From a virus: a stretch of DNA of 38,343 nucleotides. The notes beneath the pieces were generated by a model. It was not told the DNA's origin. It made no database searches and was given only the letters and a program-made list of their open reading frames with translations. Of this stretch, positions 1 through 38,343 are shown one piece after another; positions within the stretch are counted from its first letter, which is position 1; the number at the start of each line of letters is the position of its first letter. The stretch covers positions 1 through 38,343 of the IMG/VR virus record IMGVR_UViG_3300035682_000084, one strand, 5' to 3'. The position numbers and the translations under genes were made by a program.

Positions 1-127
1 TCCGCTGCGAGGTCAAAGGAAAGCGTCAGCGGTTCGTCCGCCGTCGAGATGGCATCGGCCAGCCGCTTCGCCCCCTTGCGGGTCTGCGCCGTGCCGCGCT
101 CCAGGCGCATGTTGACCGAGTCCTGCA
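1..127. repeat. Terminal direct repeat, left copy (circle overlap)
   Basis: These 127 bases are identical to 38217-38343. The length of exactly 127 matches a common largest assembler k-mer, and the tail-nozzle frame continues through the join. The simplest reading is that a circular molecule (or circularly permuted virion DNA) was opened here, not that the phage has a true 127-bp terminal repeat. Confidence 0.95.
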
Positions 128-25621: not shown

Positions 25622-28600
25622 TTAGAATCTCCGGTCGAGATACTCCGCGGCCACCTGGTCCGGTGAGCCTTGGGGGACTTGCTTGAGCAGCTCGAGCGCC
25701 TTCTCCAGCTCCGCGATTTGCCCGCGGTTGCCAATGAGAAGACTTTGCGCGTAGCGAGTCTGCACCGTCCGCATATTCCGCTCATTCGCGTAATCCCGCT
25801 TCAGCGAATAATACTTCGCCACCCCCTGCATTTGCGCGAGCACGCCGATCCCCTTGCGCAAGTCCTGCATGTAGGCCAGCTGCACCTGCAGATGCCGCAG
25901 CTGGTCGCTGCCCAGGTCCTCCGCGGGAAACTCCGGATCACGCAGCATATTCCAGCCCTTCGCCTTCAGCCGCTCATCGAGCAGCCGCAGCCGATCCTCC
26001 ACGGCCGTCACCGACCGCACCGCCTGGCTGCCGAATCCGATCGGATCACGGACAAACAACCGCCCCACGAACGGCACATCCGCCATCTCCATCATCGGCC
26101 GGCCCCGGTCGATCGACTCCGCCAGGCGCAGCGTCTCATCCGCCTGCCGCGACAGCGCCTGCTGCACGATATACTGCAGCTTCGCCGGCGAGTAATTCAT
26201 CATCGTCCCCACCTTCCGGTAGAACTCCGGCGTCGTGCTGTAGTATTGCTCGCTCGCCGGCAGCTGCACCATCCACGGCGCCACGATATGCTTCTGGCGA
26301 AACGTCGACCAATTCATGTTCGCCTCCATGATCGTCGCCAGCTGCGGCCCGAAGAACTGCAGCCCGCTCCCCGGGTCCACGATCCGCTTCAGCAGCATGA
26401 TCGCCGTCCGGTCCGCGTCCACCTTCGGCCGCCCCAGGAGATCATCCATCGTCGCATTGTAAACCACCGAGCCCATCACGCCCTCCGGCCCGTAGGGAAA
26501 CGGCACCGAGAACCCCGCCAGATCCATGAACGACAGCCGATCATCCACCACCCGCTGACGTTCCCGCTCCTTCTCCTCCTCATCCATCATCAGGAAACGA
26601 GCGATCGCCGCCCCGCCAAACATCGCCGGGATCATCACCAGCAGCCGCGTCCACGCCGTCCCCCGCACCGCCGGGTCCGGATCGGAAAGTTTCTGTCCCA
26701 CATTGCGCACGCCCTGCAGCATCGGGTTGAGGAAGCCCGGGATGCTCATCGCAATCCTCGCATCGGCAATCCCCGAGTGCTCATTGAACTGCCCGCTCGC
26801 CGTCCAATACTTCGCCAGCGCCTCCTCATCCGTCGCCCCGCGTTCCAGCGCCGCCACCGCCGCGCCCTCGCGCCCCGCCGTCTCGAAGAACGCCGCCATC
26901 GCCCGCCCACCCGTCACCAAGTTGATCAAGTCCGCCGTCTTCCAGAGCGGGAAAAGCCAATTACTCGGCTGCAGCACCGTCGCTACCGTCTTGATCACCG
27001 GGTCCTTCGCCTGGCTCACATAGAAACCCTCGCTCAGCCACTGCCAGATCGCCCCGTGCTGGAGCGACGCCAGCATCTCCTGCTCGCTCGGCTGCACCCG
27101 CGAAAGCAGCAAACCCTCCGAAAAGACCTGCGGATACTTCTTCGTAAATTTATTGACCACGCCCTTCGTATGCGCCCAGCCCGGCACCCAGCCGATCGGG
27201 TCCGGGTTGAGCAACGTCTGCGTGAAGGTATCACGAAACAAATTCCTCAGCGCAAAGACCGCACCCTGCGTGATGTTCCGCTTCCAATTCTGCGTCATCG
27301 GCCCCAGCAGCCAAGACGCCGCCTTGCCCATCTTCGAGGCCGTCTGCGGACTGGCAAAGAGCCCGAAAATCGCCGGATCACCCAGCTGGTAATACTCCCG
27401 CACCCCATCGCGCAGCAGCGACACCACGTTCACATCCGTCGGCTTCACCGGACGCCACACATCGCGGAAACTCCACGAGAGATTCACATCCTCCGCCTTC
27501 ACCTCCGGCCGGAAGCCCAGCACCTGCTCATAGGCATCGGCGATCGACTTCATCACCCAGCCCAGCGCCTCTTCCTTGCTCACCGAAGCCGCCGCCTTCA
27601 TCGGCATCTTCATCTTCACCATCGTCGAGCCCGCCAAGATCCGCGCCTCCGCTGGCAGCGAGAGATCCTTCGCCACCGCCGCCATATTGTCATAGAGTTT
27701 CAACCCGAAGCGATTCCAGTAGTAAGCCTCAAACATCTCCCGCGTCCGCTCCTCCGTCACCTCATCGATATTCCGGATCGCCTCCCCCGAGCCCCGCGCC
27801 CGGTAGACCCCCGCCGACATATCGCCCCGCCCGCGGCCCGCCGCGCCCCGGCCCGCCGTCATCACCCGCGGCAGCGGCCAGTAGCCCGGCCGCGCCCCCT
27901 GCATCCGCGCCCGGTCCATCCCCGAGATCAGCCCGCCCGCCTCCTTCACCTCCAGGATCAAGTCATGGAAGCGCGACTGCTCCTTATACATCCGCGTAAA
28001 ATTCGGAATATCCTGCACCGCCATCGCCACGATCGCCTTCAAGTCATCCGGCAAGATCCCCTCCCGCATCCCCGGATACTCCAGGCCCCCATTCTCCCAC
28101 CGGTTCAGCGACTCCTGCGCCCACGCCGCCTGGTCAAACTGCGCCAACTTCGAAGCCGGCACCTTCTTCCGCAAATCCACCCAGGCATCATGCGTCAGGT
28201 AGCGAATACTTCCGTCCGCCTCCACAATCCGCAGCCCCTTCGAGATCCCCGTGCCCGAGATCGCCAGCTGCGTCTCCGCCCCGACCGAGAGGATCATATT
28301 GTAAGCCGACATTAGCGGCGTCAGATTCGTCGACCGCACCGCCCGCGCCTTCGTCACCGCCGCCTTGTAAGCCGTCTCCGTCTCCTTCCGTTGCTTGATG
28401 ATCGCCCGCGTGATCTTCCGATCCAGCCCCGACACCGGCGCCCCCGAAGCGATCGCATTCACCGCCGACTCCCCGCCGCGGATGATCGCCCCGATCAACT
28501 CATTAGCCGAAGGCCGCACATTCGGCGGCGCATTAAACATCGCCCACCGAGTCGCCACATCCTGTCCCTGGAAAGCATTCACCGCCCGCGCCGCATCCCG

Positions 28601-31600
28601 CAAGAGCTTCGCCATCCCAGGATAAAACCGATCCGCCGCCGCCGAGATCGCCGCCGACACCTGCAAGTTCTGCACCGTCGCCGGGTCCGTCAGCAGCAGC
28701 CGCGTCCACTCCGCCACGCCCTCACCCAACCGATAGTTGTATTGCCCCGCCGCCGAGAGCGAAGCCGGCGGATCACTCGCCATGCTGCCCGGTCGATTAG
28801 TTAGCGCAATCAGCTCCGCCCCAAACGGCACGAAAATATCCGGCAACCTCGCCCGCAAGAGATACTCCAGCCCATGCCCCGCCTCGTGAAAATTAATCTG
28901 GCTCTGCGTCTCCCGCGTGTAAGCCACATGATTCGCCGGCTTATAGTGCGCCGGATGCGTCCGCGACGTCTGCGTCGTCGACCGCCGCATCTCCAGCCGC
29001 ACCGCCTCATTGACAAAATCCACGATCGAGCGAAAGCCCCAGCGTTGCCCAGGGCGGAAATTCTCCACCCCCTTGATCAGCCGGCGCCCCGCCGACGTCT
29101 CCCCCCGAGCCATCACCCAGTCCGGAGTCTGCAGCGCCGCCATCCCCACCGGAATCCCCGGCGGCACCTGCGCTCCCCCGCCTGACCGCACCGTAGCCGG
29201 CGGCGTCAGCGGATCACTCGACAACGAGCCCGCCGGCTCCATCGCCCTCGAGGTCGCCGCATACGGAGCATCCGGCGTCTCGAGCAAGCCCCGCTGCGCA
29301 AACGTATCCGGCATGCCCGCAACGACTGCATCAAGTAGCCGAATCTGCATCAGATCGGACGCCTGGCGCACCTCCCGCACCAAGGTTTGAGCGTCCGCCA
29401 ACACCATATTGGGCAAGGACATCATCATCGCGTAAGCCCCGGCCGGCGTGGTTGCTTTCATTACATCCGCCGCTTTCACGTTCATCGGATGCCGCACCAC
29501 GCTGAGGATGCCATACCGCGTATCCAGATTGATCACATGGATCATGTTCGGGTCCGCGGTTTGCAAGGTTTGCTGAACCTTCAGTAGACTGTCCGACATT
29601 CCCATGCGCAACGGTTGTGCTGCGCTGGCCGGCGCCGCTTCAAATGGCGCCATTTGTCCTGGCGCAATCATACCTGGCGCAGCCGGCAGCACCGGCATCG
29701 TTGGATCGGCGGCCACCAGCGCCGAGGCAGGATTGCGATACGTCAGCCCGGCCTCAACAAAACTAAAATAACTTTCGCCATTCGTGATCACATGATCCAG
29801 CAATGGCAGGCCAATCATATCGCCCACCTCTTCAAACCTGCGTGTTATTGCCCGATCCGCCTCACTCGGGTCCGTTTGGCCCGAGGGATGGTTGTGCATG
29901 ATCATGAAGCCCGCCAGTTTCGCTTGGGGATTCGCTTGCTGCGCCGCCAGCACCACCGAAGCAAAATCCCGCGGATGAGCCAGCGACTCGTTCAAGGTTC
30001 CCACGCTCACCACCTGCGAATGAATCACCTGCTGCCGGTCATCAAGCACCGCAATTTTAAGGCTCTCGAAGAACGGCGTCCGGTGCGCCAGGTTATACAT
30101 CGCCAAGTCCTGCGGCGATTTGATGATCGCCCCCTTGATGTTAAACGAAGCCGGTTCCCGGGAAATATAGCCCAGCATCAACCGCGAAAGCGGCACACCA
30201 TTCTTGATCGCATCGGCCAGCGCCGCGGCGTCCCCGCCTAAGAGTGCGCGGTAAGCAGCCGCTTGACGTGCGCGGGCGTCTGCGAGTCCGACGTCCCCAG
30301 CCACTCCACCGGCAGCCGATACCGGAGCGGCTTGGTATGGCTGGTCGCTGGCTTGGACTGCGGCTTGCACCGCGGCATTGCCGGCCGGTTGTTTGCTCGC
30401 TGGGACATTACTAAAATCAAAATACGCCTGCGGGTCCGGCGGCGCAAGGGTCAAGTCCGTCCGCTCCTCCACCCGTGGCGCTGCCCCCCGCATCTCCAGC
30501 GGCACATCCTCCATGCTCTGCGTCGCCATCCCGAAAATCTCCCGACCCGAGCGAAGCCTGGTTCCCAGCAACTCGATCAGGTCCGCCTCCGTCTCCACCC
30601 GAAAGCCCTTCGCCTTTAGCGCCATGGCCATCTCATCGAGATCCATGCCATCCCGGCGGAAGAGCTTATTGATAAAGACCCCCTTCTGGTTATCGCCGCC
30701 CTTGCCCTTGCCCGCGCCCTTCGCCTCCTCGTAGAGCGCCTTTAGTTCGCCCGTCCACACCGCCCGCTTCGAGCCCGACTTCGGCGCCGGCAACCCACCC
30801 AGGTCGATCACCGCCGCCAGCAGCTCCTCCGCGCCCGCGCCGGCCATCTCCTCCCGGTATTCGCCCTCCTGCCCCGAGAGATAGTCCTCATAATCCTTCA
30901 GCGTCTGCGCATTCAGCGTCGCCGTCCCCGTCGCCGGGTCGAGGTCATAGAACGGCACCGACAAATCATAAACCTGGAACGCCTTCACCGACACCGGCTC
31001 CCCCGCATCGATCGCCGACTTCACGATCTGCAAATGCTCCGAAAGCAACGAACTCCAGTTGTCCGTCTCCGCCTCCTCCAAATCAATGCCCCGAGCATTC
31101 GCCGTATCCAGCGCCCAATTGAAAGGCTCCGCCATCGCCGCCGACATCGCCGGCGGCACCGCCACCGCCACCGCCGGCGCCGGCCCCGGCATCGGAATCG
31201 TCACCGTCCCAGGCGGCAGCACATTCACCGGCGCCTCCCGCGGCACGCTCGGTGCCGTCGTCGGAGCAGCAGTCGCCGCCGCCGCTTTCCCAGGCGCCGG
31301 CAAAGCCTGCGGCACGTCCGCCTTGGCCCGAGCCACCGCACCCTCCGGCAGCTTCACCGGCACGCGGTAGGGCACGCGAGCCGCCGCACGGCCCACCGAA
31401 GGCACCAGCCCCGCCACCGAAGTCGTCGGCACCGCCACCTCGAGCGGGCCCGTCCGCACCCCGCCCGCCGTCTCCATGCGAGCAATGGCCGCCGAGATCG
31501 CCGGCTGCGCTGCTTGGGCCAGCTTCGTCTCCGCCACCGTCAGCGACTGCCCCGCCTTCATCTTCGCCGCCACCGCGGCGACCTCCTTCGCCCCCGCCAT

Positions 31601-32914
31601 CTTGTTATTGAGGAAAAATCCACCCGTCAAAGCACCCGCCCCCGCCGCCGTGGCAAATCCCCCCGGCGTCATCTCCTGGCCCCGCACCACGGCATCGATC
31701 GGGTAGGCCACCACGCCCGTCCCTGCACCGGCGCCGCCCGCCACGGCCGCCGTCCGCGCCACCTGCGGCAAGCCGCCCGCCTGGTAAGCCGTCTGCAGAC
31801 CCCGCACCGCCTGCGGCACGCTCGTCGCCACCGCCAGCCCCGCCATGGTCAGCTCGCCCCCCGCCTTGTGCATCGGGAAAAGCTCCGCCGCCTTCATCAC
31901 ATCGTCGTATTCCGTAAAATGTTCGCCCAGCTTCTTGTAGATCGCATCGTAGCCCAAGCCCGCCGCAATACCCCCGCCGACCGCGCCCGCCACGCCAGCC
32001 ACCACGGCCGCCGCTGGCGCCAGCGGAGCACCCACGCCTGATGCCAAGAACGCCGCCCCCGCACCCGTCGCCAGCAGCTTCGCCCCGCCCACCGCACCCA
32101 CCGTCATCGCACCGCCCCGGCCCGCGCCCTGCAAGAAAGCCAGCAGCTTCGGGTCCGCCTGCGCTCGAGCCTCCAGCTTGCGCCGGTCATCCATCACCTT
32201 GAAAATTTTCGCCTCATCCGCCTTGATCTTCTCGTAGTTCGACTGCGGCAAGATCCCCGCGGCAAACGCCTCCTCGACGCCCTGGGTAAATCGCTCCGGC
32301 GACGACTGATCAAAGACAATCTGCCCGCCCGCACTCGGCACCAGCCGCGGCGCCCGCTTCAACGGATCGGTCGCCATCGTCCCCGTCTCCGGGTCCACCA
32401 CCAAGGAACCGGTAAATTGAAACGCCGGCCCCTTCGCATCGAAAGTCACATCGCTCCCATCCCCCGCCTCCGGCGTCGTCACCGGCTTCGGCGTCGGCCG
32501 CGGCGCCGGCAGCTTAATCTCCGGGGCCCGTTGCTCCGCCCCTTGGAGAAACGACAAAGCCTCCTCATCCGAAGCAAACCCCGCGGTAGGGACCAGTGGC
32601 TCGCTCGTCCGCTCCTCCGCCCCCGCCGACAAGAACGCCAGCGCCTCCTCATCCGAAGCAAACCCCGCGGCCGTCGCGGGCGGGCTAACCGGTTGCACCG
32701 GCGGCAGATCCTCATCCTCCCGCGGCAGCTGAGGTTCCCCCCGCGCATCGAGGTCCTCGAGGAACGCGGCATCCGACGCTTGGACCAGGCGATCCGGCCC
32801 CAACTCCATCTCCGCCGGCGCCTCCGGCGCAATATTGAGCTGCGGGTCCGCCACCGGACCACCGTAGAGAAAGTCCAGCGCCTGCTGGTCAGATTGGAAA
32901 GCAGCGAGAGCCAT
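25622..32914 (-). CDS. Giant polyvalent protein with RadC/JAMM and zincin domains
   Basis: 2430 residues, the largest product, last in the virion operon. Near the N-terminus the motif F-x-SD-x-x-AL-x-FL is repeated three times (about 6-16, 85-95, 113-123). Residues 264-325 are a Gly/Ala-rich hydrophobic stretch that could insert in membranes. A RadC-like MPN domain (about 930-1055) holds the full JAMM motif His1007, His1009, Ser1017, Asp1020 (HNHPSGQTDPSEAD). A zincin domain follows with HEAGH (1343-1347) and a likely third ligand, Glu1398 or Glu1402 (GEGVAEW). The C-terminal third, with SWLLGPMTQNWKRN and RNLFRDTFTQTLL, resembles large polyvalent-protein domains (LPD38-like). It is probably carried in the virion and injected with DNA, where its peptidase domains could cleave host defence proteins or its own linkers. 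Confidence 0.88.
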   Translation of the reverse strand: MALAAFQSDQQALDFLYGGPVADPQLNIAPEAPAEMELGPDRLVQASDAAFLEDLDARGEPQLPREDEDLPPVQPVSPPATAAGFASDEEALAFLSAGAEERTSEPLVPTAGFASDEEALSFLQGAEQRAPEIKLPAPRPTPKPVTTPEAGDGSDVTFDAKGPAFQFTGSLVVDPETGTMATDPLKRAPRLVPSAGGQIVFDQSSPERFTQGVEEAFAAGILPQSNYEKIKADEAKIFKVMDDRRKLEARAQADPKLLAFLQGAGRGGAMTVGAVGGAKLLATGAGAAFLASGVGAPLAPAAAVVAGVAGAVGGGIAAGLGYDAIYKKLGEHFTEYDDVMKAAELFPMHKAGGELTMAGLAVATSVPQAVRGLQTAYQAGGLPQVARTAAVAGGAGAGTGVVAYPIDAVVRGQEMTPGGFATAAGAGALTGGFFLNNKMAGAKEVAAVAAKMKAGQSLTVAETKLAQAAQPAISAAIARMETAGGVRTGPLEVAVPTTSVAGLVPSVGRAAARVPYRVPVKLPEGAVARAKADVPQALPAPGKAAAATAAPTTAPSVPREAPVNVLPPGTVTIPMPGPAPAVAVAVPPAMSAAMAEPFNWALDTANARGIDLEEAETDNWSSLLSEHLQIVKSAIDAGEPVSVKAFQVYDLSVPFYDLDPATGTATLNAQTLKDYEDYLSGQEGEYREEMAGAGAEELLAAVIDLGGLPAPKSGSKRAVWTGELKALYEEAKGAGKGKGGDNQKGVFINKLFRRDGMDLDEMAMALKAKGFRVETEADLIELLGTRLRSGREIFGMATQSMEDVPLEMRGAAPRVEERTDLTLAPPDPQAYFDFSNVPASKQPAGNAAVQAAVQASDQPYQAAPVSAAGGVAGDVGLADARARQAAAYRALLGGDAAALADAIKNGVPLSRLMLGYISREPASFNIKGAIIKSPQDLAMYNLAHRTPFFESLKIAVLDDRQQVIHSQVVSVGTLNESLAHPRDFASVVLAAQQANPQAKLAGFMIMHNHPSGQTDPSEADRAITRRFEEVGDMIGLPLLDHVITNGESYFSFVEAGLTYRNPASALVAADPTMPVLPAAPGMIAPGQMAPFEAAPASAAQPLRMGMSDSLLKVQQTLQTADPNMIHVINLDTRYGILSVVRHPMNVKAADVMKATTPAGAYAMMMSLPNMVLADAQTLVREVRQASDLMQIRLLDAVVAGMPDTFAQRGLLETPDAPYAATSRAMEPAGSLSSDPLTPPATVRSGGGAQVPPGIPVGMAALQTPDWVMARGETSAGRRLIKGVENFRPGQRWGFRSIVDFVNEAVRLEMRRSTTQTSRTHPAHYKPANHVAYTRETQSQINFHEAGHGLEYLLRARLPDIFVPFGAELIALTNRPGSMASDPPASLSAAGQYNYRLGEGVAEWTRLLLTDPATVQNLQVSAAISAAADRFYPGMAKLLRDAARAVNAFQGQDVATRWAMFNAPPNVRPSANELIGAIIRGGESAVNAIASGAPVSGLDRKITRAIIKQRKETETAYKAAVTKARAVRSTNLTPLMSAYNMILSVGAETQLAISGTGISKGLRIVEADGSIRYLTHDAWVDLRKKVPASKLAQFDQAAWAQESLNRWENGGLEYPGMREGILPDDLKAIVAMAVQDIPNFTRMYKEQSRFHDLILEVKEAGGLISGMDRARMQGARPGYWPLPRVMTAGRGAAGRGRGDMSAGVYRARGSGEAIRNIDEVTEERTREMFEAYYWNRFGLKLYDNMAAVAKDLSLPAEARILAGSTMVKMKMPMKAAASVSKEEALGWVMKSIADAYEQVLGFRPEVKAEDVNLSWSFRDVWRPVKPTDVNVVSLLRDGVREYYQLGDPAIFGLFASPQTASKMGKAASWLLGPMTQNWKRNITQGAVFALRNLFRDTFTQTLLNPDPIGWVPGWAHTKGVVNKFTKKYPQVFSEGLLLSRVQPSEQEMLASLQHGAIWQWLSEGFYVSQAKDPVIKTVATVLQPSNWLFPLWKTADLINLVTGGRAMAAFFETAGREGAAVAALERGATDEEALAKYWTASGQFNEHSGIADARIAMSIPGFLNPMLQGVRNVGQKLSDPDPAVRGTAWTRLLVMIPAMFGGAAIARFLMMDEEEKERERQRVVDDRLSFMDLAGFSVPFPYGPEGVMGSVVYNATMDDLLGRPKVDADRTAIMLLKRIVDPGSGLQFFGPQLATIMEANMNWSTFRQKHIVAPWMVQLPASEQYYSTTPEFYRKVGTMMNYSPAKLQYIVQQALSRQADETLRLAESIDRGRPMMEMADVPFVGRLFVRDPIGFGSQAVRSVTAVEDRLRLLDERLKAKGWNMLRDPEFPAEDLGSDQLRHLQVQLAYMQDLRKGIGVLAQMQGVAKYYSLKRDYANERNMRTVQTRYAQSLLIGNRGQIAELEKALELLKQVPQGSPDQVAAEYLDRRF

Positions 32915-32922
32915 GGACGCTA

Positions 32923-33588
32923 TTATCGCCCACCGCGCAACATCCGCACCGCATCGGCCTCACTGATCTGTCCCGCCAAGAACGCCGCCCTCACCGCCTC
33001 CGGCGTCGACAACGCCGGCGCAGCCACCGGAGCATTGGTTCCCGCCATCGCCGGCATCGGCGTAGCAGCTGGAGTCGCCATCGGTGTCGCCGCGGGAGTC
33101 GGAGTCGGCGAAGCCGCCGGCGCTCCACCGCCAAAGCCAAAGAATGACGCGATCCCACTTGGCGCCGCCGCCGCGCCGGCCTGCTCGCCCGCCATTTGCT
33201 CCAGCGCATCCGCCAGGGCATTCGACTTCGGGTCCATCTCAAACTGGTTCGTCGTGCCCTCGATCAGTGCTGGCGCATACGTCCCCGTTACCGGGTTGTA
33301 GTTATACGCTTTGCCATCCTTGCCCGACACCGGCTTCAAGGCCGGCTGTCTTTCGGTCATCGGTTGGGCCGAATTCGGCGACGACATAAAGTAAGGCGTC
33401 ACCTCCTTTGACACTTCATTGGTCGCCATGCCCGTCGTCGGGGTGAACGATTTTGAGGCCGTCTGCATATACCTGGCATATTGGTCCCTAAACTTGGCCA
33501 GTTCCTTGCCTTTGATCGACTGACCCTCCGCGTAGCCCAACACGGTGCGCCCGTATTCTTGGGGCGACATGATTTGTGGTTCCGCCAT
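32923..33588 (-). CDS. Putative internal virion protein
   Basis: 221 residues. Ordered N-terminus (MAEPQIMSPQEYGRTVLGYAEGQSIKGKELAKFRDQYARYMQTASKSFTP), then disordered Pro/Ala/Thr-rich repeats (about 150-190: TPTPAATPMATPAATPMPA), then a short helical tail STPEAVRAAFLAGQISEADAVRMLRGGR. SD AAGGAG precedes the ATG. It is followed by the polyvalent gene after 8 bp, so the two may assemble together. A core or ejection protein is suggested by position only. Confidence 0.6.
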   Translation of the reverse strand: MAEPQIMSPQEYGRTVLGYAEGQSIKGKELAKFRDQYARYMQTASKSFTPTTGMATNEVSKEVTPYFMSSPNSAQPMTERQPALKPVSGKDGKAYNYNPVTGTYAPALIEGTTNQFEMDPKSNALADALEQMAGEQAGAAAAPSGIASFFGFGGGAPAASPTPTPAATPMATPAATPMPAMAGTNAPVAAPALSTPEAVRAAFLAGQISEADAVRMLRGGR

Positions 33589-36061: not shown

Positions 36062-38343
36062 TTAAGCTGCGTTGCGGGTGTCGGTTTGCGGGAGTCCCTC
36101 CAGCGCCGCCTCGATCGAGACATTCCGTATCTCAGGGCGTTGGAGGTTGGTCTGAAAGATGAGTTCAGCGGCGTGCGCCTTGCGCCGGATTGGTTGCTTG
36201 AGCGTGTAGTCTTCCTCCGCGCCGGTATCGTTACTTTGCCCAGGCACCAAGGTGACCGTGGCGTCCGGGTTGAAGAGCTTCGCCTCGACCGTGATTGAGC
36301 CGGCGTTAGGCAGGACAACATCGCTCAGAGCGCGGGTGAATCGCTTGCTGTGCATGTTGCCCATATTGTAGCGCCGCGTCCTAATCGTGCCGATGACTAG
36401 GCCCACATTGCTCCCGCTCGGCTCGTCGTCGGTGCCGTCATCCTTCTCGTCGAGGAGGAAGAGGCTGCCGGTCCGGCGCACGTTGAAAACGCGGCGGACA
36501 TCGCCGTAGGTGCCGACGATGAGCGCATCCACGCCAATGCCGTAGGTGTCGCGGCTCTCCCACTGGTCATTGAGGGCCGAGTAGGTGATGACCAGATCAT
36601 TCGTCTCATCCGGCGAATCGATCGTGGGGACGGCCAAGGTATACCTGTTGTTGTGCCACAGCCCAAAGGCCCGCTGCACCTTGCTCTGGTCGATGCGCTC
36701 AAACTGGTCGGCGACCGGATCACTCAGCGGCTTGGTATCGCCCCGCAATTTTAGATCAAGTTGCGTATCGAGGCGATAGACGCCGGCGTCCGAGAGGAAG
36801 AAGACGTAGCGGCCGGCCGTGGCGATACTGTTGCGGGCCGAGCAGCCGATCTCGTCAGTGATCAGCTCCAGCTTGGCGACCGCCGTGTCGATGGCAAAGC
36901 TGGCGCCGTCCGTGCTGGGAAACTGGGCCAGCGTAGCCAGCCAGATGCTTTTGCGGGCAAAGACCAAGGCGCTGCCCTCCACCCAGGGATGCACGGCGAC
37001 AATGTAGTCGCTGCCCCCGGCGCCGGCGCGGAAGCTGGCCCAGAAAGGATCGTAAACGTCGCCGTCGAGGTAGTCGGAGATGGCGACCTGGTCGCGGCCG
37101 TCGGGGATGACGAGGCGGTTGCTGATGTAGGCCGCCCACGCGACGCTCCGCATCCCTTTGTAGGTCGGGCCCGCGGCCGGCACGCCGCCCGCCGCCCGGA
37201 CGAAGCTGCCCGTGCCGGTCCAGTAGATCGGCGGCTTGACCCGGCGAAGGCGCAGTCCAGTAGTCAAGTCGCTGGCCGTGCCGCTTGGAACCGCGATGGT
37301 AAATGTGTGGTCGGTCTTGGTGGCGACATCGAACTCATGTCCGTCCAAGGCCGCCGACGATCCGGCGGTTAGGCGGATGCGGTTGCCCACGATGTAGCCG
37401 TGGCTTTTGCTGAAAATGGTGGCGGTGGTCGAGCTGACCACGGCGCTGACCGGCGTGAGAGTGTGCGTTCCGCTTTGGGTGCCGGAGGTGTTGACGGCCG
37501 TCCCGCCGCTGGTCGTGCTGATCTGCAGCGTGTCGGTCGCCTTGTTGATGACGTAATACACCGTCCCCGCCGTCACGCCGGTCGGCAAGGCGCCGGTCGT
37601 GCTGAAGACTACGGCCATGCCATTCTCCAAATTGTGGGCAGTTTTTGTGACCACGGCCGGCGAGGCAATGGTCATGGTCGCCGCACCCGCCTCGACATCC
37701 GTTCCGCGCCCCACTTCGGCAAACGTGCCGGTCTGCACCGCCTCGCGGAGCACGTAGAGCCGGTCAAAGGCTTGCACCACCGAGACATTGTCGGTCGGCT
37801 CAATGATCTCATCGGCAGGATAGCCCACCGTCTCCACCGTGTCTGTCGGCGAGGTGTTCCGCCAGAGGTAGGCTTCGCTCGGCCCGGCCATCACGATATA
37901 CTCGGCGGCGTTCTCGTAATTTTGCGAGGCGAAGACGCCGGCGGCGAAGATCCCGCCGCCATAGGTCGTCTTGACTATTGGACCCTTGTTGGCGAACGCG
38001 CTGGCCAAAATAGCGTTGGCTGTCGGCGTGCCGGTCATGGTGTATTGAAAGGTCGTGCCGCTGGGCGAGCTGATGACGAAGTCGCCGTTGTAAAGCGCAG
38101 CATCCACGCCGGTCGCCCCACGGATGTTGACTGTGGGCGTGCCGGTGTAGCCGTGCGCGGCGGTCGTGGTCACAGTGGCGAGCGTGCCGCTGCGAGTGAT
38201 CGTGCTGATGGCTTTGTCCGCTGCGAGGTCAAAGGAAAGCGTCAGCGGTTCGTCCGCCGTCGAGATGGCATCGGCCAGCCGCTTCGCCCCCTTGCGGGTC
38301 TGCGCCGTGCCGCGCTCCAGGCGCATGTTGACCGAGTCCTGCA
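36062..38343 (-). CDS. Tail nozzle protein (tail tubular B / gp10-like), main part
   Basis: 754 residues in this part, 791 with the 37 residues coded at 111-221 across the circle join. Features by the 791 numbering: modules with HGY motifs at about 82-134 (AAHGYTGTPTVNIRG) and 334-387 (SHGYIVGNRIRLTAGS), and one with HNLENGMAVVFSTTGALPTGVTAGTVYYV at 260-320, similar to the common phage FCCH-like module. The rest is a beta-propeller-like body with GRDQVAISDYLDGDVYDPFWASFRAG and FGLWHNNRYTLAVP. This order and length are those of podovirus nozzle proteins (T7 gp12, P22 gp10). It follows the amidase gene and precedes the fibre gene. Confidence 0.85.
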   Translation of the reverse strand, partial: QDSVNMRLERGTAQTRKGAKRLADAISTADEPLTLSFDLAADKAISTITRSGTLATVTTTAAHGYTGTPTVNIRGATGVDAALYNGDFVISSPSGTTFQYTMTGTPTANAILASAFANKGPIVKTTYGGGIFAAGVFASQNYENAAEYIVMAGPSEAYLWRNTSPTDTVETVGYPADEIIEPTDNVSVVQAFDRLYVLREAVQTGTFAEVGRGTDVEAGAATMTIASPAVVTKTAHNLENGMAVVFSTTGALPTGVTAGTVYYVINKATDTLQISTTSGGTAVNTSGTQSGTHTLTPVSAVVSSTTATIFSKSHGYIVGNRIRLTAGSSAALDGHEFDVATKTDHTFTIAVPSGTASDLTTGLRLRRVKPPIYWTGTGSFVRAAGGVPAAGPTYKGMRSVAWAAYISNRLVIPDGRDQVAISDYLDGDVYDPFWASFRAGAGGSDYIVAVHPWVEGSALVFARKSIWLATLAQFPSTDGASFAIDTAVAKLELITDEIGCSARNSIATAGRYVFFLSDAGVYRLDTQLDLKLRGDTKPLSDPVADQFERIDQSKVQRAFGLWHNNRYTLAVPTIDSPDETNDLVITYSALNDQWESRDTYGIGVDALIVGTYGDVRRVFNVRRTGSLFLLDEKDDGTDDEPSGSNVGLVIGTIRTRRYNMGNMHSKRFTRALSDVVLPNAGSITVEAKLFNPDATVTLVPGQSNDTGAEEDYTLKQPIRRKAHAAELIFQTNLQRPEIRNVSIEAALEGLPQTDTRNAA
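38217..38343. repeat. Terminal direct repeat, right copy (circle overlap)
   Basis: Identical to 1-127; see the left copy. Either copy should be removed before the genome is treated as a circle of about 38,216 bp. Confidence 0.95.

What the first reader, a model, noticed from the sequence alone, without database searches (positions are those of the whole stretch)
25622..32914. 2430-residue polyvalent protein with both JAMM and zincin active sites
One protein carries a complete RadC/JAMM motif (H1007, H1009, S1017, D1020), a complete HEAGH motif (1343-1347) with a downstream GEGVAEW glutamate, a glycine-rich membrane-like stretch and an LPD38-like C-terminal region. Polyvalent proteins are known in phages and conjugative elements, and are thought to enter the cell with DNA. 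Two different metallopeptidase types in one podovirus-type ejection protein point to possible self-processing or attack on host proteins (defence, ubiquitin-like or pupylation-like targets).
Basis: partly seen in the sequence, partly recalled or inferred. Interest (0 to 1): 0.85.

Follow-up and report, generated by a model that had tools for sequence, protein, structure and literature searches.

The report
Phage polyvalent protein with swappable tandem RadC
A complete small phage genome encodes a giant multi-domain protein, probably shot into the bacterium with the DNA, that carries an exchangeable module made of one intact RadC metal-enzyme domain followed by a decayed second copy; the same module sits in four unrelated giant phage proteins, and the other putative peptidase in this protein is independent of it.

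Summary
In detail: a 2430-aa ORF lies at 25622-32914, on the minus strand, with every named motif where stated. RadC/JAMM (E 6e-28) and LPD38 (8e-12) are real domains. The HEAGH "zincin" is supported only by motif and conservation: no profile or fold search confirms it.

Five relatives show that the two metal sites are not one device. The HEAGH core is constant, but the RadC part is an optional ~405-aa cassette. It is absent from a relative ~98% identical over the C-terminal half, replaced in another by an unrelated segment, and kept in a 63% relative. The same cassette occurs in three further unrelated giant phage proteins, including a DarB-like methylase-helicase; two of these have no HExxH. 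JAMM therefore cannot be required for self-processing.

New: the second half of the cassette is a second RadC/JAB domain that has lost all metal ligands. Its profile finds one PDB match, RadC (E 2.9e-4). This active-plus-dead pair in one chain was not found in 50,697 phage or 72,556 plasmid records. The 2017 survey placed RadC only in conjugative-element polyvalent proteins and LPD38 only in phage ones; here they co-occur. Substrate and virion packaging are untested.

The parts
25622..32914 (-). Polyvalent protein gene, 2430 aa
   Evidence: ORF and translation; five relatives in IMG/VR with the same core
32546..32893 (-). N-terminal triple short motif (SDQQALDFL, SDEEALAFL, SDEEALSFL; residues 8-123); relatives L005 and L009 carry three copies of SASALLA instead
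31949..32056 (-). Hydrophobic Gly/Ala-rich stretch, residues 287-322 (membrane-like)
   Evidence: hydropathy
30521..30841 (-). Unnamed domain just before the cassette (residues 692-798), also before the cassette in the unrelated protein of L018 (about 40-54% identity)
29230..30479 (-). Exchangeable segment: DNA similarity with relative L002 stops at 30479 and resumes at 29230 (93% identical on both sides); L002 has about 235 nt here instead
   Evidence: blastn, alignment A1
29255..30475 (-). RadC cassette, residues 814-1220: leader + RadC + degenerate RadC
   Evidence: same block in L005, L018, L020, L021, L035
29747..30121 (-). RadC/JAB domain with JAMM residues E950, H1007, H1009, S1017, D1020 (residues 932-1056)
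   Evidence: Pfam PF04002 E 6.2e-28; PDB 2qlc by sequence E 1.3e-15 and by fold
29255..29611 (-). Second RadC-like domain without metal ligands (residues 1102-1220)
   Evidence: profile A7 vs PDB: only hit 2qlc RadC, E 2.9e-4; hhalign to independent RadCs 94%, non-overlapping control windows below 1%; predicted helix/strand order matches RadC
28499..29125 (-). HEAGH domain (putative zincin), residues 1264-1472; HEAGH at 28874-28888, GEGVAEW at 28706-28726
   Evidence: fold not confirmed
26066..26512 (-). LPD38 domain, residues 2135-2283
   Evidence: Pfam PF18857 E 7.6e-12
32923..33588 (-). 221-aa gene immediately upstream; a 214-221 aa ORF lies at the same place in all five relatives

Best explanation
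This is a phage-type polyvalent protein built as a constant carrier with a cargo slot. The carrier (N-terminal repeats, hydrophobic stretch, HEAGH domain, LPD38) is most likely packaged in the virion and ejected with the DNA (inferred). The slot between the unnamed domain (692-798) and the HEAGH domain is refilled by recombination in the gene (shown by comparison). Here it holds a self-contained tandem-RadC module: one RadC/JAB domain with a complete JAMM site followed by a second RadC/JAB domain that has lost every metal ligand (shown by sequence). I infer that the dead copy packs against the live one as an intramolecular partner, as MPN- subunits do for MPN+ enzymes, and that the module acts in the newly infected cell as an early metallohydrolase effector serving the incoming DNA (nucleic-acid processing or counter-defence), not on the polyprotein itself. 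The HEAGH domain, constant in the carrier, is the better candidate for any processing or release of cargo.
For: Cassette optional: L002 (98% aa identity over the C-terminal 1204 aa) lacks it, L003 and L004 carry an unrelated ~270-aa segment, L009 lacks it, L005 keeps it. No other RadC was found in the records without it. Cassette portable: 45-57% identity in three further scaffolds with no similarity outside it, apart from the 692-798 domain in L018: L018 (PBECR5, LPD3), L020/L021, and L035 (4298 aa, SNF2 helicase plus methylase, DarB-like). Second domain is RadC-like. JAMM residues invariant in 6 of 6 cassettes. Purifying selection: cassette dN 0.20 / dS 0.85 between window and L005. Carrier: LPD38 is reported only from phage-type polyvalent proteins (PMC5512222). 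The gene follows the structural block of a terminally repeated, probably complete genome. The DarB-like giant of podovirus JC1 (4515 aa, end of the morphogenesis block) is in virions by mass spectrometry (PMC9144972). An MPN- partner is essential for MPN+ activity in BRCC36-KIAA0157 (PMC4579573).
Against: No experiment. Packaging is inferred. The HEAGH domain's fold is unconfirmed. The structure model of the cassette is low-confidence (mean pLDDT 52, three sequences), so packing of the two RadC domains is not shown. RadC's substrate is unknown and disputed even in E. coli (PMC5512222). Only six cassettes were found, all metagenomic.
Confidence: 0.58

Rival explanations
1. One reading: two metallopeptidases in one protein jointly process the protein or attack host ubiquitin-like or pup-like conjugates.
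For: Both motifs intact and conserved where present. JAB relatives in anti-phage systems are deconjugases. The cassette model has weak fold matches to Rpn11, JAMM1 and BubCD.
Against: HEAGH and RadC are separable in nature: L002, L003 and L009 have HEAGH without RadC; L018 and L035 have RadC without any HExxH. RadC-clade domains are argued to lack the ubiquitin-tail groove (PMC5512222). No defence-model match for the window protein.
Confidence: 0.12
2. The cassette is a nuclease or nucleotide-processing module that repairs or protects incoming DNA (the 2017 survey's reading of RadC), the second domain being a nucleic-acid-binding half rather than an activating partner.
For: The survey's contextual argument for RadC. 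One cassette is fused to a DarB-like methylase-helicase. The most conserved part of the second domain is the motif TLQTADPxMIHVxNxxTRxGxxSVxRxP.
Against: No DNA-binding domain such as HhH is recognised in the cassette; I know of no biochemistry for any RadC.
Confidence: 0.4
3. The cassette is a passenger without a phage function, present or absent by drift.
For: Absent from close relatives.
Against: JAMM residues invariant in 6 of 6 at about 45-57% overall identity between scaffolds; dN/dS about 0.24; independent presence in four scaffold families.
Confidence: 0.07
4. The HEAGH region is not a peptidase but a helical structural domain of the carrier that contains the motif by accident.
For: No profile or fold match to any zincin; the AF2 model is mainly helical.
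Against: Expected HExxH count 0.012 per protein; HEAGH and the glutamate motif GEGxAEW about 50 residues on are invariant in 5 of 5, and both lie in the confidently modelled helices.
Confidence: 0.22

Closest known systems
Phage-type polyvalent proteins (Iyer et al. 2017, PMC5512222), LPD38 group
   Same: Very large multi-domain protein of a tailed phage; LPD38; HExxH domain; enzymatic domain unrelated to the rest
   Different: [quoted passage not shown] the HEAGH domain does not match Pfam's polyvalent peptidase model
RadC family (PF04002; PDB 2qlc)
   Same: Complete JAMM residues and RadC fold
   Different: No HhH region recognised; embedded in a giant protein; followed by a degenerate RadC copy. 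RadCs of the phage records checked here are small solo proteins of at most 244 aa
P1 DarB-like / Bcep22-like podovirus giant proteins (JC1 gp69)
   Same: Giant protein at the end of the virion block; one cassette (L035) sits in a methylase-helicase protein of this type
   Different: The window protein has no recognised methylase or helicase
Eukaryotic MPN+/MPN- pairs (BRCC36-KIAA0157, Rpn11-Rpn8, CSN5-CSN6)
   Same: One JAB domain with metal ligands next to one without
   Different: Both in one chain, RadC clade, viral; pairing not shown; no membership claimed

Membership tests
Polyvalent proteins | Several domains of disparate activity in one polypeptide of a mobile element | tested here: met
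   RadC, HEAGH domain and LPD38 in 2430 aa of a phage genome
Polyvalent proteins | Delivered into the host with the DNA | not testable with these tools
   Gene order and LPD38 only
RadC family (PF04002) | RadC profile above cut-off with JAMM ligands E, HxH, S, D | tested here: met
   97.6 bits against a cut-off of 22.1; E950, H1007, H1009, S1017, D1020
RadC family (NCBI full-length RadC) | Full-length RadC model (NF000642, TIGR00608) above cut-off, HhH region included | tested here: not met
   93.7 and 89.2 bits against cut-offs of 180 and 133.9; only the C-terminal JAB part aligns
RadC/JAB fold, second domain | Homology to the RadC JAB domain | tested here: met
JAMM metalloenzyme, second domain | Metal ligands | tested here: not met
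   No HxH or S/D equivalents in the aligned sequences
Zincin metallopeptidase | HExxH helix plus a downstream glutamate helix | tested here: met
Zincin metallopeptidase | Zincin fold or profile match | tested here: inconclusive
   No match, but model and profile are weak
MPTase-PolyVal (PF18818) | Profile match | tested here: not met
   No match at E up to 10
LPD38 | Profile match above cut-off | tested here: met
   46.1 bits against 27
MPN+/MPN- enzyme pair | Physical pairing that supports activity | not testable with these tools
   Needs structure and assay

The most novel reading that the evidence does not exclude
The cassette is a single-chain MPN+/MPN- enzyme of the RadC clade: a portable effector in which a dead RadC copy switches on a live one. 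Several lineages of phages load it into their ejected giant proteins, which would give RadC a defined biological role as an early-infection effector.
Probability: 0.35. Interest if true: 0.8.

Novelty: new variant of a known kind. Interest (0 to 1): 0.62.

Why it matters
RadC is one of the commonest bacterial proteins with no agreed function. A compact ~400-aa module in which RadC is always followed by a dead partner domain, carried by four unrelated ejected-type giant proteins and naturally missing from a relative 98% identical over the C-terminal half, makes its role testable in a phage infection. It also shows the polyvalent protein as a carrier with a swappable cargo slot, and separates the cargo from the candidate processing peptidase.

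Tried and rejected
(1) Zincin confirmation by Pfam, PDB profile, PF18818, N4 vRNAP and L020 profile comparison, and Foldseek against PDB and BFVD: all negative or uninformative. (2) A SUMO-like stretch in the cassette leader: several SUMO chains at E about 0.5-1 and one at 0.0009 (a chain matched in two stretches) over 32 residues; predicted helical at low confidence, taken as chance. (3) Recent horizontal transfer of the cassette between window and L005, suggested by 73% against 62-63% identity: rejected, because dS is similar in cassette and flanks (0.85 against 0.69-0.99), so the cassette is merely more constrained. (4) Host prophage copies: two scans of genome contigs found none. (5) Cassette relatives in isolated phages and plasmids: only ordinary RadC stretches; the second domain finds nothing. 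(6) L003 replacement segment: no Pfam match; L005 extra insert: weak GNAT only, E 0.12.

Full report
OBSERVATION. The ORF at 25622-32914 lies on the minus strand and encodes 2430 residues without a stop. Pfam recognises RadC (932-1056, E 6.2e-28) and LPD38 (2135-2283, E 7.6e-12); nothing else passes its cut-off. PHROGs finds only the RadC stretch. From the protein's composition one expects 0.012 HExxH and 0.0006 HxHx7SxxD by chance.

CONTEXT. The window starts and ends with the same 127 bases, so it is probably a complete genome of about 38.2 kb; this inference is mine. Read along the minus strand and across the repeat, a large terminase-like protein, scaffold, major head protein, SU10-type portal, head fibre, endolysin, tail proteins, small late genes, the giant gene and an integrase follow one another. 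The giant gene thus follows structural genes; in N4 the virion RNA polymerase likewise follows virion protein genes, and in JC1 the DarB-like protein ends the virion block and was found in virions (PMC9144972). Packaging of the window protein is inferred from this and from LPD38.

RELATIVES OF THE WHOLE PROTEIN. IMG/VR gave five: L002, L003 and L004 (the last two encode identical proteins, from separate records), L005 and L009. Isolated phages gave only RadC matches, and the C-terminal 922 residues gave nothing significant. The alignment shows a constant N-terminal ~800 residues and a constant C-terminal ~1200 residues, with a middle that changes. The window has the RadC block. L002 has a short linker. 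L003/L004 have an unrelated ~270-aa segment bounded on both sides by copies of the linker TVRSGGGxQVPPG. L005 has an extra segment with a weak GNAT match plus the RadC block. L009 has a linker. At DNA level, similarity to L002 stops at 30479 and resumes at 29230, 93% identical on both sides. RadC is found nowhere else in the records without it, though these may be fragments. HEAGH and GEG(V/I)AEW are present in all.

RELATIVES OF THE CASSETTE. Searches with the block itself found it in L018, a 3187-aa protein with PBECR5 and LPD3; in L020 (2316 aa, with its own HELWH) and L021, which share a scaffold; and in L035, a 4298-aa open protein with SNF2 helicase and methylase domains. Identity to the window inside the block is 45-57%. 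Outside it there is no detectable similarity to the window protein, except for the domain just before it in L018. That makes four scaffold families. L018 and L035 have no HExxH at all. The two metal sites are therefore independent of each other, and the JAMM site cannot be a general requirement for processing this protein family.

A SECOND, DEAD RADC. The conserved ~115 residues after RadC had no assignment. The AlphaFold2 model of the cassette, low in confidence overall (mean pLDDT 52), gives them the order H-E-E-H-E-H-E, the same as RadC. A profile of this region alone finds a single chain in the whole PDB at E up to 10: the RadC structure 2qlc, E 2.9e-4. Profile-profile comparison with five RadC proteins from other phages and plasmids gives 94% (score 50). 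Windows of the same protein that do not overlap the RadC or post-RadC regions stay below 1%, and 100 column shuffles of the region reach at most 3% against the cassette RadC profile. None of the metal ligands is present in the aligned sequences. The cassette is therefore a live RadC followed by a dead one. Its strongest conserved run, TLQTADPxMIHVxNxxTRxGxxSVxRxP, lies in the dead copy, which argues that this copy does a job. Window-L005 dN/dS is about 0.24 in the cassette and 0.33-0.46 in the flanks.

THE HEAGH DOMAIN. Motif, spacing and conservation favour a zincin. The helix with HEAGH and the helix with GEGVAEW are the best-modelled parts. Every homology test failed, with shallow alignments. 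I treat it as a probable, unproven zincin.

MECHANISM. Shown: the exchange of cargo at a fixed slot, the portability of the cassette, the intact JAMM site, the ligand-less second domain, the constant HEAGH. Inferred: packaging and ejection; intramolecular pairing of the two RadC domains by analogy with BRCC36-KIAA0157, where the MPN- partner is essential (PMC4579573); action on a substrate in the newly infected cell. Between nucleic-acid-directed and peptidase action I lean to the former, following the contextual argument for RadC in PMC5512222, without a test.

COMPARISON. Iyer et al. [quoted passage not shown] The window and L005 have both in one chain, and three further scaffolds from the viral collection carry RadC. 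That division no longer holds. I found no description of the tandem, within the limits of an open-access library.

Noticed in passing
window 1-127 and 38217-38343: Exact 127-bp terminal direct repeat: the window is probably a complete circularly assembled genome of about 38.2 kb.
   Followed up: partly
window 32546-32893 (-); N-termini in L002-L005, L009: Two or three copies of a 9-residue motif at the N-terminus (SDEEALAFL type), replaced in L005/L009 by three copies of SASALLA; found in no other ORF of these loci. Possibly a loading or docking tag.
   Followed up: partly
L002, L005 and L009, middle of the giant protein: Linkers with QMDLLG and QGDLFG, which resemble sliding-clamp-binding motifs (from memory); absent from the window protein.
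   Followed up: no
L003:8349-9347 and the same place in L004: Segment of about 270 aa that replaces the RadC cassette; no Pfam match.
   Followed up: partly
L035:3-12896: 4298-aa open protein with methylase, SNF2 helicase and tandem RadC, DarB-like: an injected anti-restriction type protein that carries the cassette.
   Followed up: partly
L005 and L009 giant proteins: N-terminal part much closer (dS 0.24) than C-terminal part (dS 0.81): recombination within the gene, with the cargo slot in between.
   Followed up: partly
window 25670-28315 (+): 881-aa open frame antisense to the giant gene, probably a G+C-rich shadow.
   Followed up: no
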